Below are positions 1 through 8,859 of a DNA stretch of 8,859 nt, in pieces (within the stretch, counting starts at the first letter, position 1; every line of letters starts with the position of its first letter). Source of the stretch: Campylobacter sp. UBA1713 (GTDB taxonomy: Bacteria; Campylobacterota; Campylobacteria; Campylobacterales; Campylobacteraceae); contig DCIZ01000082.1 of assembly GCA_002317305.1 (NCBI GenBank), forward strand, positions 11,682 to 20,540, written 5' to 3'. The notes beneath the pieces are model-generated. The model made no database searches. It was not told where the DNA came from and saw only the letters and a list, made by a program, of their open reading frames with translations. The position numbers were made by a program, and so were the translations under genes.

Positions 1-63
1 AAAAAAATCTCCTAAAAACACTCCGCAAAATCAAGCTAAACTGGTTTTTAGAGATGCCCTTAT
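1..63. repeat. Family A palindromic repeat, partial copy cut by window edge
   Basis: The inner end, TTTTTAGAGATGCCCTTA at 45-62, is the exact reverse complement (18/18) of 309-326. Similarity continues outward from there: the reverse complement of 1-50 aligns with about 319-367, sharing a TAGTTT/CAGTTT-type block and then GTTTTTAG. This is one half of an element that runs off the left edge of the window. No coding potential was recognised. It is probably a MITE-like non-autonomous element, but no transposase is in view, so that label is an inference. Confidence 0.6.
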
Positions 64-307
64 TTAAATTTGCTTTTTATTTTGCCTCCGCCCAAACTCT
101 CTTTTCGCTAAAAGCTCAAAGAGAGTTTGGGCGGAGGCTGGGGGGACGGGGGCACTGCCCCTGCGACCCCGTTTTTGAGTGCAGAATGCGGAAAACAGAA
201 AAACTGAATTTGTGAAAATTCGCTTTTAAGTAAATTTGACAATTCTGCTCGCTCACCATACTCCTACAAAAACTAAAAATAGCCAATTTTTGCTTAAATT
301 TTGATTT
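64..307 (+). repeat. Composite intergenic repeat B1 (hairpin, GC stem, heptamers, AT-rich tail)
   Basis: This non-coding segment sits between two family A elements and has the same module order as the reverse complement of the composite element near 6056-6410. The order is GCTTTTTATTTTG, a long perfect hairpin (84-138), the motif GGACGGGGGC, a small GC hairpin GGGGC-ACT-GCCCC (149-161), heptamers (CAGAATG, CGGAAAA, CAGAAAA), then GAATTTGTGAAAATTCGCTTTT and an ATTCTGCTCGCTC tail. Stop codons and the dense palindromes argue against a gene. Its function is unknown. Confidence 0.6.
84..138. other. Perfect 21-bp stem hairpin with 13-nt loop
   Basis: Bases 84-104 are perfectly complementary to 118-138, and the loop is TCGCTAAAAGCTC. 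The top half of the stem is G+C-rich and the loop-proximal half is A/T-rich (CTTT/AAAG). No U-tract follows on either strand, so this is not a standard intrinsic terminator. The loop (TCGnTAAA..CTC) and the left flank GCTTTTTATTTTG recur at the hairpin 6215-6270, while the stem sequence differs at about half of its positions with every change compensated. It may be a structured RNA or a DNA hairpin recognised by a protein. Confidence 0.7.
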
Positions 308-487
308 TTAAGGGCATCTCTAAAAAATAGTTTGGCTCAATTTCGAGAAATGTTTTTAGCGAATTTTTGTTTTCAAACAAGGAGAATACTTGACGTATTT
401 GACGAGTTTTAAGGCAAAAAAGCGCAAAAACAGACTCGAAAGTGAGCCACAGATTTTTCTTTAAGTAGTTTTTAGAGGTGCCCTTAA
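308..487. repeat. Family A palindromic repeat, about 180 bp, complete copy
   Basis: The ends are inverted copies: TAAGGGCATCTCTAAAAA (309-326) against TTTTTAGAGGTGCCCTTA (469-486), with one mismatch. Inner blocks are inverted too: GGCTCAATTTCGAG (334-347) against CTCGAAAGTGAGCC (435-448), with one mismatch. The centre holds AATAC-TTGAC-GTATT (385-399). The whole element is therefore an imperfect palindrome, as expected of a MITE. A minus-strand reading frame crosses it but matches no family I recognise and is explained by the repeat. Its right end lies directly against the lptG promoter. Confidence 0.65.
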
Positions 488-2839: not shown

Positions 2840-4159
2840 ATGGAACTACAACCCAAAGAGATAGTAAAACTGCTAGACGAATACGTCATAGGGCAAAACG
2901 ATGCAAAAAAAGTCATCGCCGTAGCACTTCGTAACCGCTACCGCCGCTTAAAGCTAACAGAGAGCCAAAGGGAGGACATAACCCCAAAAAACATTCTCAT
3001 GATAGGCTCGACTGGTGTCGGCAAAACAGAGATAGCTAGACGTCTTTCAAAGCTTTTCGGACTACCTTTTGTAAAGGTGGAAGCTAGCAAATATACAGAA
3101 GTGGGCTACGTCGGTAGAGATGTCGAGTCGATGGTAAGAGACCTAGCTAGAACGGCACTTGCGATGGTAAAAAAAGAAGCCCAAGAGCAAAACCAAACAC
3201 GCATCGAGGAGTTTGTAGAGGAGAAGCTTTTGGAAATTCTCGTCCCAAATTTGCCTGCTGGTGCTAGCGAAGAGAAGCTTGCCGCACTAGAAGCAAGTCG
3301 CGAAAAGATGCGTGAAAAGCTAAAAAACGGCGCACTTGACAACGCCACAGTGGAGCTAGAGGTGAGCGAAGCACGCAGTGAAAGCGAGCTAGACCTTTCG
3401 CCAGAACTAGACGAGATGCGTGAAAATTTAGCAAACATCATCATAAGCGCAGGCAAAAAAGTCAAAAAGAAATTTAAGGTAAAAGATGCGCGAAAAGTCC
3501 TAGAAAACGAAGCCGTCAGCACGCTTTTAGACGATGGTGAGATAAAATCAGAAGCGCTCATGCGCACAGAAAACGAAGGCATCATCTTTATAGACGAGAT
3601 AGACAAAGTGGTCGCACTCTCTGGCGACAAAGGGAGCGAGCCGAGCAAAAACGGCGTTCAGCGGGACTTGCTGCCCATCGTCGAGGGTTGCACGGTAAAG
3701 ACAAAGATAGGGCAAGTCAAAACCGACCACATCTTGTTTATAGCAGCTGGCGCTTTTCACGTGAGCAAACCGAGCGACCTTATCCCTGAACTTCAAGGGC
3801 GTTTTCCTTTGCGTGTTAGCCTCGACCCGCTGGACGAAAAGAGGCTTTTTGAGATTCTCACAAAACCAAAAAATTCGCTTTTAAGGCAGTATGAGCTTTT
3901 GCTTGGCACTGAAAATGTGCGACTGGTTTGGGAAGACGATGCAGTAAGCGAGCTAGCTAGGCTGACAGCACAGGCAAATGAGACGGTCGAGGACATAGGC
4001 GCTAGGCGACTTCACACGGTTTTAGAAAAAGTCCTCGAGGATGTTAGCTTTGCTGCGGAGGAGTTTGCAGGACGTGAATATGTGGTAACAGCAGAGATGG
4101 TTCGCCAAAAGCTAGAAAACGTGGCACAAGATAGGGACTTAGCGAAGTATATTTTGTAA
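2840..4159 (+). CDS. hslU: ATP-dependent protease ATPase subunit HslU (ClpY)
   Basis: HslU is the AAA+ unfoldase ring that feeds substrates into the HslV peptidase. The 439-residue product has Walker A GSTGVGKT (56-63; the family more often has GPTGVGKT), the substrate-gripping pore loop GYVG (89-92), a charged intermediate I domain (about 110-240), Walker B IIFIDEID (248-255), an arginine-finger region ELQGRF (317-322) and sensor 2 GARR (387-390). The C-terminal DLAKYIL resembles the tail that docks into HslV. AAAAGGA lies five bases before the ATG. The usual upstream partner hslV is absent; lysA ends 21 bases upstream instead. A functional HslV would have to be encoded elsewhere. Confidence 0.95.
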   Translation: MELQPKEIVKLLDEYVIGQNDAKKVIAVALRNRYRRLKLTESQREDITPKNILMIGSTGVGKTEIARRLSKLFGLPFVKVEASKYTEVGYVGRDVESMVRDLARTALAMVKKEAQEQNQTRIEEFVEEKLLEILVPNLPAGASEEKLAALEASREKMREKLKNGALDNATVELEVSEARSESELDLSPELDEMRENLANIIISAGKKVKKKFKVKDARKVLENEAVSTLLDDGEIKSEALMRTENEGIIFIDEIDKVVALSGDKGSEPSKNGVQRDLLPIVEGCTVKTKIGQVKTDHILFIAAGAFHVSKPSDLIPELQGRFPLRVSLDPLDEKRLFEILTKPKNSLLRQYELLLGTENVRLVWEDDAVSELARLTAQANETVEDIGARRLHTVLEKVLEDVSFAAEEFAGREYVVTAEMVRQKLENVAQDRDLAKYIL

Positions 4160-4412
4160 GTTCCGAATGCGGAGTGTGTTCGGATTGCGGATTGCGGAAT
4201 TTGGAATGCGGATTCTGCAATTCACTAGAATCGACAAACAAAACAAGCGAAGCGCTTTTTGCAAAGCAAAAATATTTCTTTAAATTCGCGAAAAAAGCAA
4301 ATTTATAAAAATTCTGTTTTCCGCATTCCGTTTTCCGCTTTCCGTTTTCCGTTTTCCGCTTTCCGCCGTCATTCTGAGGGTGGGCGTTAGCCCGCCCGAA
4401 GAATCCCCTGCA
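4160..4412 (-). repeat. Repeat mosaic B2 between convergent hslU and lysE-like genes
   Basis: The gap of about 300 bases between the two stop codons holds no gene. Heptamers of the CGGAATG/CGGATTG/CGGAGTG kind occupy about 4165-4215. A stretch with ACAAGCGAAGCGCT and an A/T-rich region follows. Seven perfect-length heptamers (TTTTCCG, CATTCCG, CTTTCCG types) then lie in tandem at 4317-4365, followed by an ATTCTGA...GAAGAAT hairpin at 4371-4404. Read on the minus strand, the hairpin precedes the heptamers, whereas in the 6056-6410 element it follows them, so modules have been shuffled. No intrinsic terminator with a U-tract was found for either convergent gene. Confidence 0.6.
4371..4404. repeat. 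REP-like hairpin ATTCTGA...GAAGAAT
   Basis: The outer stem is ATTCT (4371-4375) with AGAAT (4400-4404). Next come opposed GA/GA mismatches, then an inner 8-bp stem GGGTGGGC/GCCCGCCC containing one G-T wobble, closed by the loop GTTA. The same boundary motif recurs at 6062-6093 and, inverted, at 6374-6404, and part of it appears at the right window edge. Opposed GA steps can form stable sheared pairs in RNA. This resembles REP-type elements known in many bacteria; its assignment to a named family is not possible by eye. Confidence 0.6.
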
Positions 4413-4465: not shown

Positions 4466-5101
4466 TTAAACAAATTTCATCACGCCGTAAAAGAGAGCGA
4501 CTACGCCTACTAGTAAAAGCACGGCATCGGAGAGTAGGCAGATGAGGCGTTTGTGGCGTCCAAAAACGGCGGTTTGACAAAAGAGTGCATAGCCAAAAAG
4601 CAAAGCAAAGTCTAGTGCTATCCAAACAAGCGTTAGAAAAGCGAGGCTAAGATGCACACTGGGCGTAACGGCGACAAACTGCGGAAAAAAGCTGGTAAAA
4701 AAGAGAATATCTTTTGGGTTTGAAAGCCCTAGTAGCAGCCCGCTGAGAAAGTGGCTTTTTTGGTGAGAGTGAATTTGTGCGTTTGTTTTGTTTTGTGTAG
4801 TTTTGGCGGTTTGCATGGTGTTTTTTAAGCCTTTAACGCCTAAAAAGATAATGAAAACTGCTCCGAAAATGGCGATGACGTTTAGCAAATTTGGGCTAAC
4901 GCTAAACATGCCTAGCAAAACAAGCGAGGCTATGCCGATGAGAATAAGTGAAGCGGCGTTTGTGCCAAAGATGCTTTTTAGCGCTGCTTTTAGCCCGCCA
5001 CTCGCTGCGTTTCGTAACACAAAAGCTACAACTGGACCTGGCGTAACTATGAGTGCCACAACTGCCAAAACAAAACCAAAAAGCAAATTTAAGTCTAGCA
5101 T
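4466..5101 (-). CDS. LysE/RhtB-family amino acid exporter
   Basis: This is an inner-membrane exporter of the LysE superfamily; members export lysine, arginine, threonine, homoserine or related small molecules. The product is 211 residues, typical for the family. The signature TPGP (20-23) is followed by the GLKAAL...FGTNAA stretch (36-50), and the second conserved block, FLSGLLLGLSNPKDILFF (118-135) with PQFV, is intact. About six hydrophobic helices can be seen. The ATG at 5101 is chosen because AGGAG (5112-5108) precedes it by six bases; an upstream start at 5176 would lie inside the neighbour in another frame. The start overlaps the upstream gene's stop as ATGCTAG, so translation is probably coupled. 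The substrate cannot be read from the sequence. Confidence 0.88.
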   Translation of the reverse strand: MLDLNLLFGFVLAVVALIVTPGPVVAFVLRNAASGGLKAALKSIFGTNAASLILIGIASLVLLGMFSVSPNLLNVIAIFGAVFIIFLGVKGLKNTMQTAKTTQNKTNAQIHSHQKSHFLSGLLLGLSNPKDILFFTSFFPQFVAVTPSVHLSLAFLTLVWIALDFALLFGYALFCQTAVFGRHKRLICLLSDAVLLLVGVVALFYGVMKFV

Positions 5102-5861
5102 TTTTCGCTCCTGATTTTTAAGGGGCATTTGTTTGGCGCTTGAGTGTTTGGCTCGTTTAAAACATACTGCTTCCACTCAAATTTACTTTCATCGCCAAAA
5201 AAGCCAAGTTCGTTTGGCAAAATGCCGCTGTTGTAGTTTTTTACTCTTTTTCGAATAATTTCTCTCATTTTTCTACCTTGTTTTGTCTCGTTAGATGCTA
5301 CAAAATCAAAATTTTCTCGTGGATTTACGACAAACGTGATGTAACTTCCCAAATTTCTATTTTTCAAAATTTCATAATGCGGAGTGCTTACGTTAAAAAA
5401 CAACTCTATTTTGTTAAAACAAAAAGTCCAGTTATGTCTGTTTGGGTTTGTTGGAATGTGTTTTGGATATGCTTGAATGTCATTGTCATGCAATATCTGA
5501 ATTTGACTCCAAGCAAAATTTTGCTCTTCTTTTAGAGTTTGAAAATGTTGTCTAAAAAACACCACAAGTGGCGTTAAAATTCGTTCTTTTTGCGATATTT
5601 TTTTAATAAAATTTGTATATTCAACAAAACCGTCTATCAAATTCTCTTTACTTTCTACAAATAAAAATAAAATTTGGTTGCTTTTAAAAGCATTTAGTCC
5701 AAAAACGCAAGGGAAATTTTTGTCGCTTAATTTAGTCCGAAAGCAAGAAAATGCCTCTTTGTGCCACGCGATATTTTCTATATTTTCCGATGTTTTTAGA
5801 AGCTGAAACTCTCTCTCTCTCTCGTTTTTTCGTCTAGTGTTTGTGTAGTGTATGTTTGCAT
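5095..5861 (-). CDS. YqcI/YcgG-family protein, out of frame at a GA tract (phase-variable or broken)
   Basis: ATG at 5861 has GGAG (5870-5867) five bases before it and encodes MQTYTTQTLDEKTRERE, then runs into a stop because of the GA tract at 5809-5823. The frame open downstream of the tract has no usual start until a TTG at 5640, inside the domain. Removing one GA unit joins both parts into 254 residues, normal for the family. Family marks in the joined protein are FPCVFGLNAF (49-58), LHDND (123-127), a W-rich core (about 144-165), NPRENFDF (179-186), the REIIRKRV helix (199-206) and EWKQYVLNE (228-236). Characterised relatives such as GntA of guanitoxin synthesis are heme-dependent N-hydroxylases of guanidino amino acids; the substrate here is unknown. 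The stop overlaps the exporter start. Sequencing error or a true pseudogene are alternatives. Confidence 0.75.
5809..5823 (-). repeat. (GA)7 simple-sequence tract in the YqcI/YcgG coding region
   Basis: On the coding strand the tract reads seven GA units plus a G, starting 13 codons after the ATG at 5861. With seven units the reading frame stops soon afterwards at TAA; with six (or nine) units it enters the long conserved frame. Short dinucleotide tracts near a start codon are classic slipped-strand contingency switches. The present copy number is the OFF state. Confidence 0.7.
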
Positions 5862-5865
5862 ATCA

Positions 5866-5897
5866 TCTCCGTTTGTTTAAATTTTTCGATAAGTGTA
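5866..5897 (-). promoter_or_regulatory. Candidate promoter and leader of the YqcI-LysE unit
   Basis: On the minus strand TTTGGTTACACT ends at 5892, with TACACT (5897-5892) as a possible -10 and a TG-containing T-rich stretch just upstream, similar in layout to the lptG promoter. The leader would be about 25-30 bases and includes the GGAG ribosome site. No convincing -35 box is visible. The assignment rests on pattern and spacing only. Confidence 0.35.
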
Positions 5898-6055
5898 ACC
5901 AAATTTAGATAAATTTTGACTTAATAGAATCTTATAAAAACTAGTTTGGCTCGGTTTTAAAAAAACTAGCTTTCAGCGAGCACTTCGCTTGTTGTGTTGT
6001 TGCTTTTTTAATATTTGCTAAATTTTTGTCAAATGCAAAAAAAAGCTAGTGCAAC
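5898..6055. other. A/T-rich intergenic stretch with repeat remnants
   Basis: No gene is seen. TAGTTTGGCTC (5942-5952) is identical to 328-338 inside the family A element, and CTAGTTT/AAACTAG (5941-5947, 5963-5969) could fold. ACTAGCTTT (5965-5973) is inverted at 6042-6050. The reverse complement of 5975-5998 carries ACAAGCGAAGTGCT, close to the ACAAGCGAAGCGCT of the 4160-4412 mosaic. These look like decayed repeat modules upstream of the YqcI promoter. Confidence 0.4.
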
Positions 6056-6410
6056 GCCGTCATTCTGATGGAGGCGTAAGCCGACCGAAGAATCCCCTGA
6101 AATTTGACGGAGCAGAATCTTCAAAATTCACAAAAAAGCGAATTTACAAAAATTCCGTTTTCTGTTTTCCGCTTTCTGTTTTCTGAATGCAGGGGCGAAA
6201 GCCCCCGTCCGCCCTGTCCAGCCGCCGTTTTTCTTTGAGATTTATCGAAAAGAAAAACGGCGGCTGGACAAAATAAAAAGCGTTAGCTTTTTACATACGG
6301 AAAGCAGAAAGCGAAATTCGTCAAAATTTGCTTTTTTGTGAATTTAAAGATTCTACTCGCTCAAAAGTCAGGGATTCTTCGGTCGGCTTCGCCTCCCTCA
6401 GAATGACGGC
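6056..6410. repeat. Composite palindromic element B3, 355 bp
   Basis: The ends are inverted (GCCGTCATTCTGA at the left, TCAGAATGACGGC at the right), and the arms match inward through GGAGGCG..AGCCGACCGAAGAATCCC, an AGAATCTT..AATTCACAAAAAAGC block and heptamers of the CGGAAAG/CAGAAAG kind. A perfect 22-bp hairpin (6215-6270) sits near the middle, next to GGGGC-GAAA-GCCCC (6192-6205), which would be a GNRA-type tetraloop as plus-strand RNA. The left arm is longer than the right. No protein is encoded. It separates the methyltransferase gene from the YqcI-LysE unit. Confidence 0.7.
6215..6270. other. Perfect 22-bp stem hairpin with 12-nt loop
   Basis: Bases 6215-6236 are perfectly complementary to 6249-6270. 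On the minus strand the loop is TCGATAAATCTC and the element is preceded by GCTTTTTATTTTG, both shared with the hairpin at 84-138. About 11 of 21 aligned stem positions differ between the two hairpins, yet both stems are perfect. No U-tract follows on either strand, so a plain terminator role is unlikely. Confidence 0.7.
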
Positions 6411-6435
6411 ATTAATTTATCGATTCACGAGAATC

Positions 6436-6474
6436 GCAAATTTCCGCATTCCGTTTTTCGCATTCCGCACGCAC
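6436..6474 (-). repeat. Short heptamer array next to the methyltransferase stop codon
   Basis: CATTCCG, TTTTTCG, CATTCCG and CACGCAC follow one another up to the stop codon of the methyltransferase gene at 6475-6477. They match the heptamer family seen at 4317-4365 and 8740-8785. No terminator-like hairpin with a T-tract was seen downstream of the gene. Confidence 0.5.
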
Positions 6475-8735: not shown

Positions 8736-8859
8736 CGTGCGGAGTGCGTGCGGAAAGCAGAATGCGGAAAACGGAAAACGGAATTTGTGAAATTCGCTTT
8801 TTTGCGAATTTGACTTTTTCCGCCCTCGCTAGGCGGGATTCTTCGCTTCGCTAACGCTC
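8736..8859 (+). repeat. Composite repeat B4 upstream of the F-like gene, cut by window edge
   Basis: Heptamers (CGGAGTG, CGGAAAG, CAGAATG, CGGAAAA twice) run to about 8780. AATTTGTGAAATTC follows, then a hairpin AAATTCGC-TTTTTT-GCGAATTT (8790-8811) and a GATTCTTCGCTTCGCTAACGCTC end that looks like half of an ATTCTGA/GAAGAAT element. The module order matches 6290-6410. It begins about 33 bases upstream of the F-like gene's start, leaving little room for that gene's promoter. Confidence 0.55.

What the first reader, a model, noticed from the sequence alone, without database searches (positions are those of the whole stretch)
5095..5861. Phase-variable YqcI/YcgG-family gene caught OFF by a GA dinucleotide tract
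Seen directly: a well-placed ATG with GGAG site at 5861, a (GA)7 tract 13 codons later, and a long open frame with all family motifs in the frame that one fewer GA unit would give. The combined product is 254 residues. A random pseudogene would not be expected to carry its only lesion exactly in a dinucleotide tract near the start. Phase variation of a YqcI/YcgG protein is not something I know to have been described.
Basis: partly seen in the sequence, partly recalled or inferred. Interest (0 to 1): 0.75.

Follow-up and report, generated by a model that had tools for sequence, protein, structure and literature searches.

The report
Repeat-switched guanidine-hydroxylase gene in Campylobacter
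In an unnamed Campylobacter genome, the gene for a predicted guanidine-hydroxylating heme enzyme is out of frame at a seven-unit GA repeat just after its start codon, in a leader closely similar to that of a predicted sugar-transferase gene, so the enzyme is likely switched on and off at random, as bacteria do with surface genes.

Summary
On the minus strand, ATG 5861 (GGAG at 5867-5870) is followed by (GA)7 at 5810-5823, and its frame stops after 21 codons. A 238-codon frame beyond the tract encodes a complete, undecayed YqcI/YcgG protein (Pfam 175 bits; 28 of 28 invariant family residues). Its model matches AglA, a heme-thiolate guanidine N-hydroxylase (TM 0.83).

The whole genome supports the switch interpretation. 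It has 11 (GA)6-9 tracts where 0.08-1 is expected, all on the coding strand, 8 within about 17 codons of an ATG. Four of 11 frames run on through the tract, near the one third of a free-running switch. Most of these genes look like envelope-sugar genes. No MutL reaches the family cut-off in the genus.

Unexpected: about 100 bp before the yqcI tract (85 of 105 columns identical) is shared with a GtrII-type gene's leader and ends at the tract in both. The gene is rare in the order (2 of 398 genomes) and AT-rich, so an acquired enzyme probably captured a resident phase-variable leader. It overlaps a LysE-type exporter gene.

Length variation was not observed: no reads or second strain were reachable. 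Two relatives' copies are broken without a GA tract, so fixed loss is the main rival.

The parts
5824..5924 (-). Leader shared with the GtrII-type gene on contig C33: 5' region, ribosome site, start codon and first codons up to the tract
   Evidence: 85 of 105 columns identical, score 60 against a maximum of 28 in 200 shuffles; a 23-base stretch occurs only at these two genes
5867..5870 (-). GGAG, putative ribosome-binding site of ATG 5861
   Evidence: read from the sequence
5796..5861 (-). 21-codon frame of ATG 5861 with its stop, as assembled
   Evidence: translation
5810..5823 (-). (GA)7 tract where the frame is interrupted
   Evidence: found as G000:C141:17491-17504
5095..5811 (-). YqcI/YcgG enzyme body, 238 codons and stop TAG 5095-5097, in another frame than ATG 5861
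   Evidence: PF08892 175.1 bits; model pLDDT 90.7; AglA fold match
4466..5098 (-). LysE-type exporter gene whose ATG overlaps the yqcI stop codon
   Evidence: PF01810 91.1 bits, cut-off 25.6; junction read

Best explanation
The yqcI gene is likely a phase-variable (slipped-strand) switch: this assembly shows it out of frame at a (GA)7 tract right after its start codon, in a leader closely similar to that of a predicted sugar-transferase gene of the same genome. Shown: the tract, the interrupted frame, the intact enzyme body, the shared leader, ten sister tracts, and the overlap with a LysE-type exporter gene. Inferred: gain or loss of GA units during replication moves the reading frame among three registers, only one of which joins the ATG to the enzyme body; in the other two only a short peptide is made, and a restart inside the long frame (first possible start TTG 5640) would lack the heme-ligand cysteine. 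Inferred: when made, the enzyme uses a cysteine-ligated heme to N-hydroxylate a guanidino compound (arginine or a derivative), and the LysE-type pump exports the product. Frame shifts would then silence the enzyme and, through lost coupling, perhaps lower the exporter, giving a mixed population of producers and non-producers. Inferred: the enzyme gene came from elsewhere and was joined near its original start to a resident phase-variable leader.
For: Tract and frames. Intact family protein; 28 of 28 invariant columns and 42 of 45 columns conserved in at least 17 of 18 homologues are kept, one of the 3 differences being the start-Met column that the piece does not hold. Heme-ligand Cys and pocket residues present; AglA fold. 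Genome-wide: 11 GA tracts, 11 of 11 on the coding strand, 8 of 11 within about 17 codons of an ATG, 4 of 11 in frame. No run of 5 units but eleven of 6 or more in the fetched 74 kb. MutL below the cut-off in 16 of 16 genus genomes. Leader shared with C33. Rarity: 1 of 60 and 2 of 398 genomes; GC 32.5% against 44.4%. LysE partner in 3 of 4 relatives whose DNA was read.
Against: No tract-length variation was seen; the protein search returned only the window's own truncated gene call as a near-identical hit. The copy in G351 is broken by frame shift and stops without a GA tract, and the L004 copy is broken beside a run of six A, so the gene can simply be lost. LysE has its own AGGAG and a normal GC of 44.4%, which weakens coupling and joint recent arrival. 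AglA itself is essentially inactive on free arginine, so the substrate is open. Several other homologues have longer N-termini than P0002 and P0006, so the original start site is not certain.
Confidence: 0.78

Rival explanations
1. Fixed pseudogene: an acquired, dispensable gene lost its frame once, by slippage in the tract, and now decays without switching back.
For: Relatives' copies in G351 and L004 are broken without a GA tract; the family is nearly absent from the order (2 of 398 genomes).
Against: No second lesion and no loss of conserved residues in 238 codons; the tract is one of 11 of its kind in the genome, 4 of 11 in frame; the leader is shared with another tract gene.
Confidence: 0.15
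2. Sequencing or assembly error: the true tract has another length and the gene is simply intact.
For: The assembly is a draft in 160 contigs, and repeats are where assemblies err.
Against: A 14-base tract fits inside any short read, and 7 of 11 tracts interrupt their frames, which single errors would not explain. Even a wrong length call would leave a slippage-prone tract in the same place.
Confidence: 0.04
3. The 21-codon ORF is a regulatory leader peptide, or ribosomes slip on the tract by programme, so that the enzyme is made without any change of DNA.
For: Two other loci (C111b, C122) have a short tract-bearing ORF in which a frame ends over the start codon of the next gene.
Against: In yqcI the short frame ends inside the enzyme's coding region, and the long frame has no ATG, GTG or TTG before TTG 5640, past the heme-ligand cysteine. 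I know of no programmed slippage signal made of GA repeats (recalled, not searched).
Confidence: 0.03

Closest known systems
AglA of Streptomyces monomycini, YqcI/YcgG-family heme-thiolate guanidine N-hydroxylase (PMC12866846; PDB 9ub3 and others)
   Same: Family, predicted fold (TM 0.83), heme-ligand Cys and Phe/Arg/Phe pocket residues
   Different: 22-23% identity; AglA belongs to argolaphos biosynthesis and acts on an aminomethylphosphonate-linked arginine. The window gene has a LysE-type exporter beside it, no biosynthetic cluster within the window, and a GA tract at its 5' end.
GntA, guanitoxin-pathway N-hydroxylase (NF041366)
   Same: Same Pfam family, weak match over most of its length (45.6 bits)
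   Different: Far below the equivalog cut-off of 145 bits; not GntA.
CT-repeat phase-variable outer-membrane protein genes of Helicobacter pylori (oipA, babA; PMC10564699 and PMC5394467, abstracts in a listing)
   Same: Dinucleotide tract in the 5' coding region, translational on/off switching in a relative of the same order
   Different: There CT on the coding strand and adhesins or porins; here GA, an enzyme with an exporter, and a leader shared between unrelated genes.
Campylobacter phasome catalogue (PhasomeIt, PMC6321876; passages and one section read)
   Same: Lists dinucleotide tracts of 6 or more units as putative phase-variable loci in the genus: 44 in 77 genomes
   Different: That survey is dominated by poly-G/C (91% of tracts); this one genome has 11 GA and 2 CA tracts. 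The parts I read name no YqcI/YcgG gene; its supplementary tables were not seen.

Membership tests
YqcI/YcgG (PF08892) | Score above the gathering cut-off over the whole domain | tested here: met
   175.1 bits against 27, profile positions 1-210 of 211
YqcI/YcgG (PF08892) | Heme-ligand cysteine and pocket residues of AglA | tested here: met
   C35, F138, R152, R165, F168 and R187 match; N163 stands for Gln177 and R183 for Lys196 (alignments read)
YqcI/YcgG (PF08892) | AglA-like fold | tested here: met
   Model of the piece, pLDDT 90.7; AglA entries are the 5 of 132 matches with E <= 0.001
YqcI/YcgG (PF08892) | Heme binding and guanidine N-hydroxylation | not testable with these tools
   needs protein
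GntA equivalog (NF041366) | Score above the equivalog cut-off | tested here: not met
   45.6 bits against 145
Slipped-strand phase-variable gene | Repeat of a unit not divisible by three, long enough to slip, inside the coding region | tested here: met
   (GA)7 at 5810-5823; 6 or more units is the cut-off used by PhasomeIt
Slipped-strand phase-variable gene | Long frame continues in another register and the gene body is otherwise intact | tested here: met
Slipped-strand phase-variable gene | Tract length differs between cells or strains | not testable with these tools
   No reads and no second strain; the protein search gave only the window's own gene call as a near-identical hit
Slipped-strand phase-variable gene | Several loci with the same tract type in the genome, mixed in and out of frame | tested here: met
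   11 tracts, 4 in frame and 7 interrupted; the C111a frame runs into masked bases further on
LysE-type translocator (PF01810) | Score above the gathering cut-off | tested here: met
   91.1 bits against 25.6; none of the 5 NCBIfam models listed reaches its cut-off, so the substrate is open

The most novel reading that the evidence does not exclude
This lineage has a portable phase-variation module: a roughly 100-bp leader ending in a GA tract that is copied in front of other genes and turns a newly acquired metabolic enzyme (here a guanidine N-hydroxylase with its exporter) into a random switch, so that a secreted N-hydroxyguanidine metabolite is made by only part of the population. At other loci the same kind of tract sits in a short leader ORF that ends over the next gene's start codon and would switch it by translational coupling.
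Probability: 0.4. Interest if true: 0.75.

Novelty: new variant of a known kind. Interest (0 to 1): 0.55.

Why it matters
Slipped-strand phase variation is known mainly for surface structures, adhesins and DNA methylases (established knowledge). Here it appears on a small-molecule enzyme of a family whose characterised members make bioactive N-hydroxyguanidines, paired with an exporter gene. Bet-hedged production of a secreted metabolite would be an unusual target. The shared leader suggests how a foreign gene can be brought under such a switch, which strain comparisons can test. N-hydroxyarginine also feeds into host nitric-oxide and arginase chemistry (recalled), a possible reason for a host-associated bacterium to vary it.

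Tried and rejected
Looking for another strain: the protein search found only the window's own truncated gene call as a near-identical hit; a second tract gene likewise gave only its own cluster at 100% (P0020). HslU P0024 is recorded on two contigs, the longest of 21,553 bases, while C141 has 20,675, so a second assembly may exist; I could not reach it.

GntA membership: rejected. GA tracts as a peculiarity of this genome: rejected. 50 of 153 genomes of the family hold at least one 12-base GA run, and one other genus (g10) has one in 13 of its 14 genomes searched. In the window's own genus 3 of 16 have one.

Synteny around hslU: 15 congener loci came with about 1.5 kb of flank or less; of the seven window genes only hslU matched, so no empty-site comparison was possible.

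Leader likeness beyond C33: the yqcI leader also resembles the C80 leader more weakly (score 36, maximum of 200 shuffles 25), partly over a stretch like the genome's intergenic repeats; I rest the capture claim on C33 only.

Literature (listings unless stated): 'phase-variable' with 'hydroxyarginine', 0 papers. 'YcgG' with 'phase variation', 3 papers; in the one whose passage I read, YcgG2 is an E. coli c-di-GMP phosphodiesterase, unrelated. 'YqcI' with Helicobacter and Campylobacter: no paper with all three terms headed the ranking. Searches showed nothing on this gene. These searches cover open-licence papers only.

Full report
What is there. On the minus strand an ATG at 5861 with GGAG at 5867-5870 is followed by (GA)7 at 5810-5823. 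The frame of that ATG stops after 21 codons. A second frame, open from 5862 to the TAG at 5095-5097, holds the long coding region and has no ATG, GTG or TTG before TTG 5640.

The enzyme body. Piece 5098-5811 matches PF08892 at 175.1 bits over positions 1-210 of 211. The NCBIfam GntA model gives 45.6 bits against a cut-off of 145, so it is not GntA. Of 19 proteins found, one is the window's own truncated gene call and 18 are homologues at 39-55% identity. The window keeps 28 of 28 columns invariant among the 18. It keeps 42 of 45 columns identical in at least 17 of 18; one of the three differences is the start-Met column, which the piece does not hold. Each of the 18 homologues keeps 39-45 of 45-50 in a similar leave-one-out count, so there is no sign of decay. 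The model of the piece has mean pLDDT 90.7. The five PDB matches with E <= 0.001 are all AglA (TM 0.83-0.84; next hit E 0.51), which is also the only PDB relative by sequence at E <= 0.001. In AglA the heme iron is bound by Cys44, and Phe152, Arg179 and Phe182 shape the pocket (PMC12866846: abstract, introduction and first of two parts of the results read). Reading the alignments, Cys44 corresponds to C35 of the piece, Phe152 to F138, Arg166 to R152, Gln177 to N163, Arg179 to R165, Phe182 to F168, Lys196 to R183 and Arg200 to R187. Guanidine N-hydroxylation is a reasonable inference; the substrate is unknown, and AglA itself is essentially inactive on free arginine.

The partner. The yqcI stop codon overlaps the ATG of a LysE-type exporter gene (4466-5098). 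The same order with overlapping ends is seen in Helicobacter bilis L003, the Neisseriaceae bin L004 and G351/L078, but not in L002, whose contig ends about 0.9 kb after the gene. That is 3 of the 4 relatives whose DNA I read. Coupled expression is inferred; LysE has its own AGGAG.

Genome-wide tracts. The genome is an unnamed Campylobacter: HslU's best named relatives are C. hyointestinalis at 65-66%, unnamed metagenome proteins reach 71%, and the 15 congeners searched have 62-66%. The genome holds 11 GA tracts of 6-9 units. Chance models give 0.08-1.0 for 6 or more units and 0.004-0.08 for 7 or more, against 11 and 8 seen; the training DNA was the 74 kb around the tracts. That DNA has 28 GA runs of 3 units, 8 of 4, none of 5, and 11 of 6 or more. 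All 11 tracts read GA on the strand of the gene, and 8 of 11 start within about 17 codons of an ATG. Genes hit or directly followed: three GtrII-type transferases, two sulfatase-domain proteins (their EptA_B_N matches are below the cut-off), an MBOAT acyltransferase, one gene weakly like TauD/CsiD (below both cut-offs), a family-2 glycosyltransferase, an FdtA-type sugar enzyme, one unknown, and yqcI. In 4 of 11 the frame runs on through the tract (C4, C80, C111a, C122; C111a runs into masked bases further on); in 7 it is interrupted. One in three is what a freely slipping tract would give. Two CA tracts, no TA tract and eight G tracts of 9 or more were also found. MutL is below the family cut-off in 16 of 16 genus genomes, three of them only 82-83% complete, while 11 of 14 control genomes pass; repair of slippage by that route is therefore unlikely.

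The shared leader. The 101 bases before the yqcI tract align to the leader of the GtrII-type gene on contig C33 with 85 of 105 columns identical; the score is 60 against a maximum of 28 in 200 shuffles. The likeness stops at the tract (post-tract score 10, shuffle mean 10.7) and upstream of the leader (13, shuffle mean 12.9). A 23-base stretch of it occurs at two places in the genome, these two genes, with up to three mismatches allowed, and the reversed control pattern nowhere. A second leader likeness joins C17, C122 and C159. Homologues P0002 and P0006 begin with their methionine where the window's tract ends, while several others have longer, unlike N-termini. The simplest reading is that the leader with its tract was joined to an acquired gene near its original start. 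Acquisition is supported by rarity (1 of 60 relatives; 2 of 398 genomes of the order) and by GC of 32.5% against a mean of 44.4% (sd 4.9; 52 ORFs, some possibly shadow frames). LysE at 44.4% does not share this composition, which speaks against a recent joint arrival.

Against the reading. No length variation could be seen. Copies in G351 and L004 are broken without GA tracts. GA tracts as such are not new in the family: 50 of 153 genomes have one, and PhasomeIt counted 44 dinucleotide tracts in 77 Campylobacter genomes (PMC6321876, passages and one section read). What appears new is the target, a small-molecule enzyme with its exporter, and the copied leader. My searches of open-licence papers showed no report of a phase-variable YqcI/YcgG gene.

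Verdict. Phase-variable gene caught off: likely (0.78). Fixed loss 0.15, error 0.04, other control 0.03. Interest 0.55; a new variant of a known kind.

Noticed in passing
L022:3651-3866 (contig C122) and L021 around 3540-3556 (contig C111): A GA tract lies in a short ORF of which one frame ends in a stop codon overlapping the ATG of the next gene (a family-2 glycosyltransferase in L022, an unknown in L021): possible phase-variable coupled leader ORFs. The post-tract DNA of the two is alike (score 48, shuffle maximum 29).
   Followed up: partly
L080:244-259 (contig C65): A (CA)8 tract about a dozen codons into a 522-codon open frame that matches the sulfatase-domain paralogue: another dinucleotide switch candidate, continuous here.
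   Followed up: no
L075 / contig C66:466-2058: A further sulfatase-domain paralogue with seven in-frame stops, a decayed copy.
   Followed up: no
window 3-368, 4305-4377, 6124-6472, 8742-8811: Intergenic repeats recur in the window: TTCCG-rich arrays and 24-60 base inverted copies. Similar stretches stand upstream of several tract genes.
   Followed up: no
   Followed up: no
genus g10 of the family, for example G033 and G503: GA runs of 6 or more units are found in 13 of 14 genomes searched of this other genus, so GA-based switching may be a habit of that lineage.
   Followed up: no
L078 (G351) and L004: The yqcI relatives there are frame-broken without GA tracts, with the LysE gene still beside them.
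   Followed up: partly
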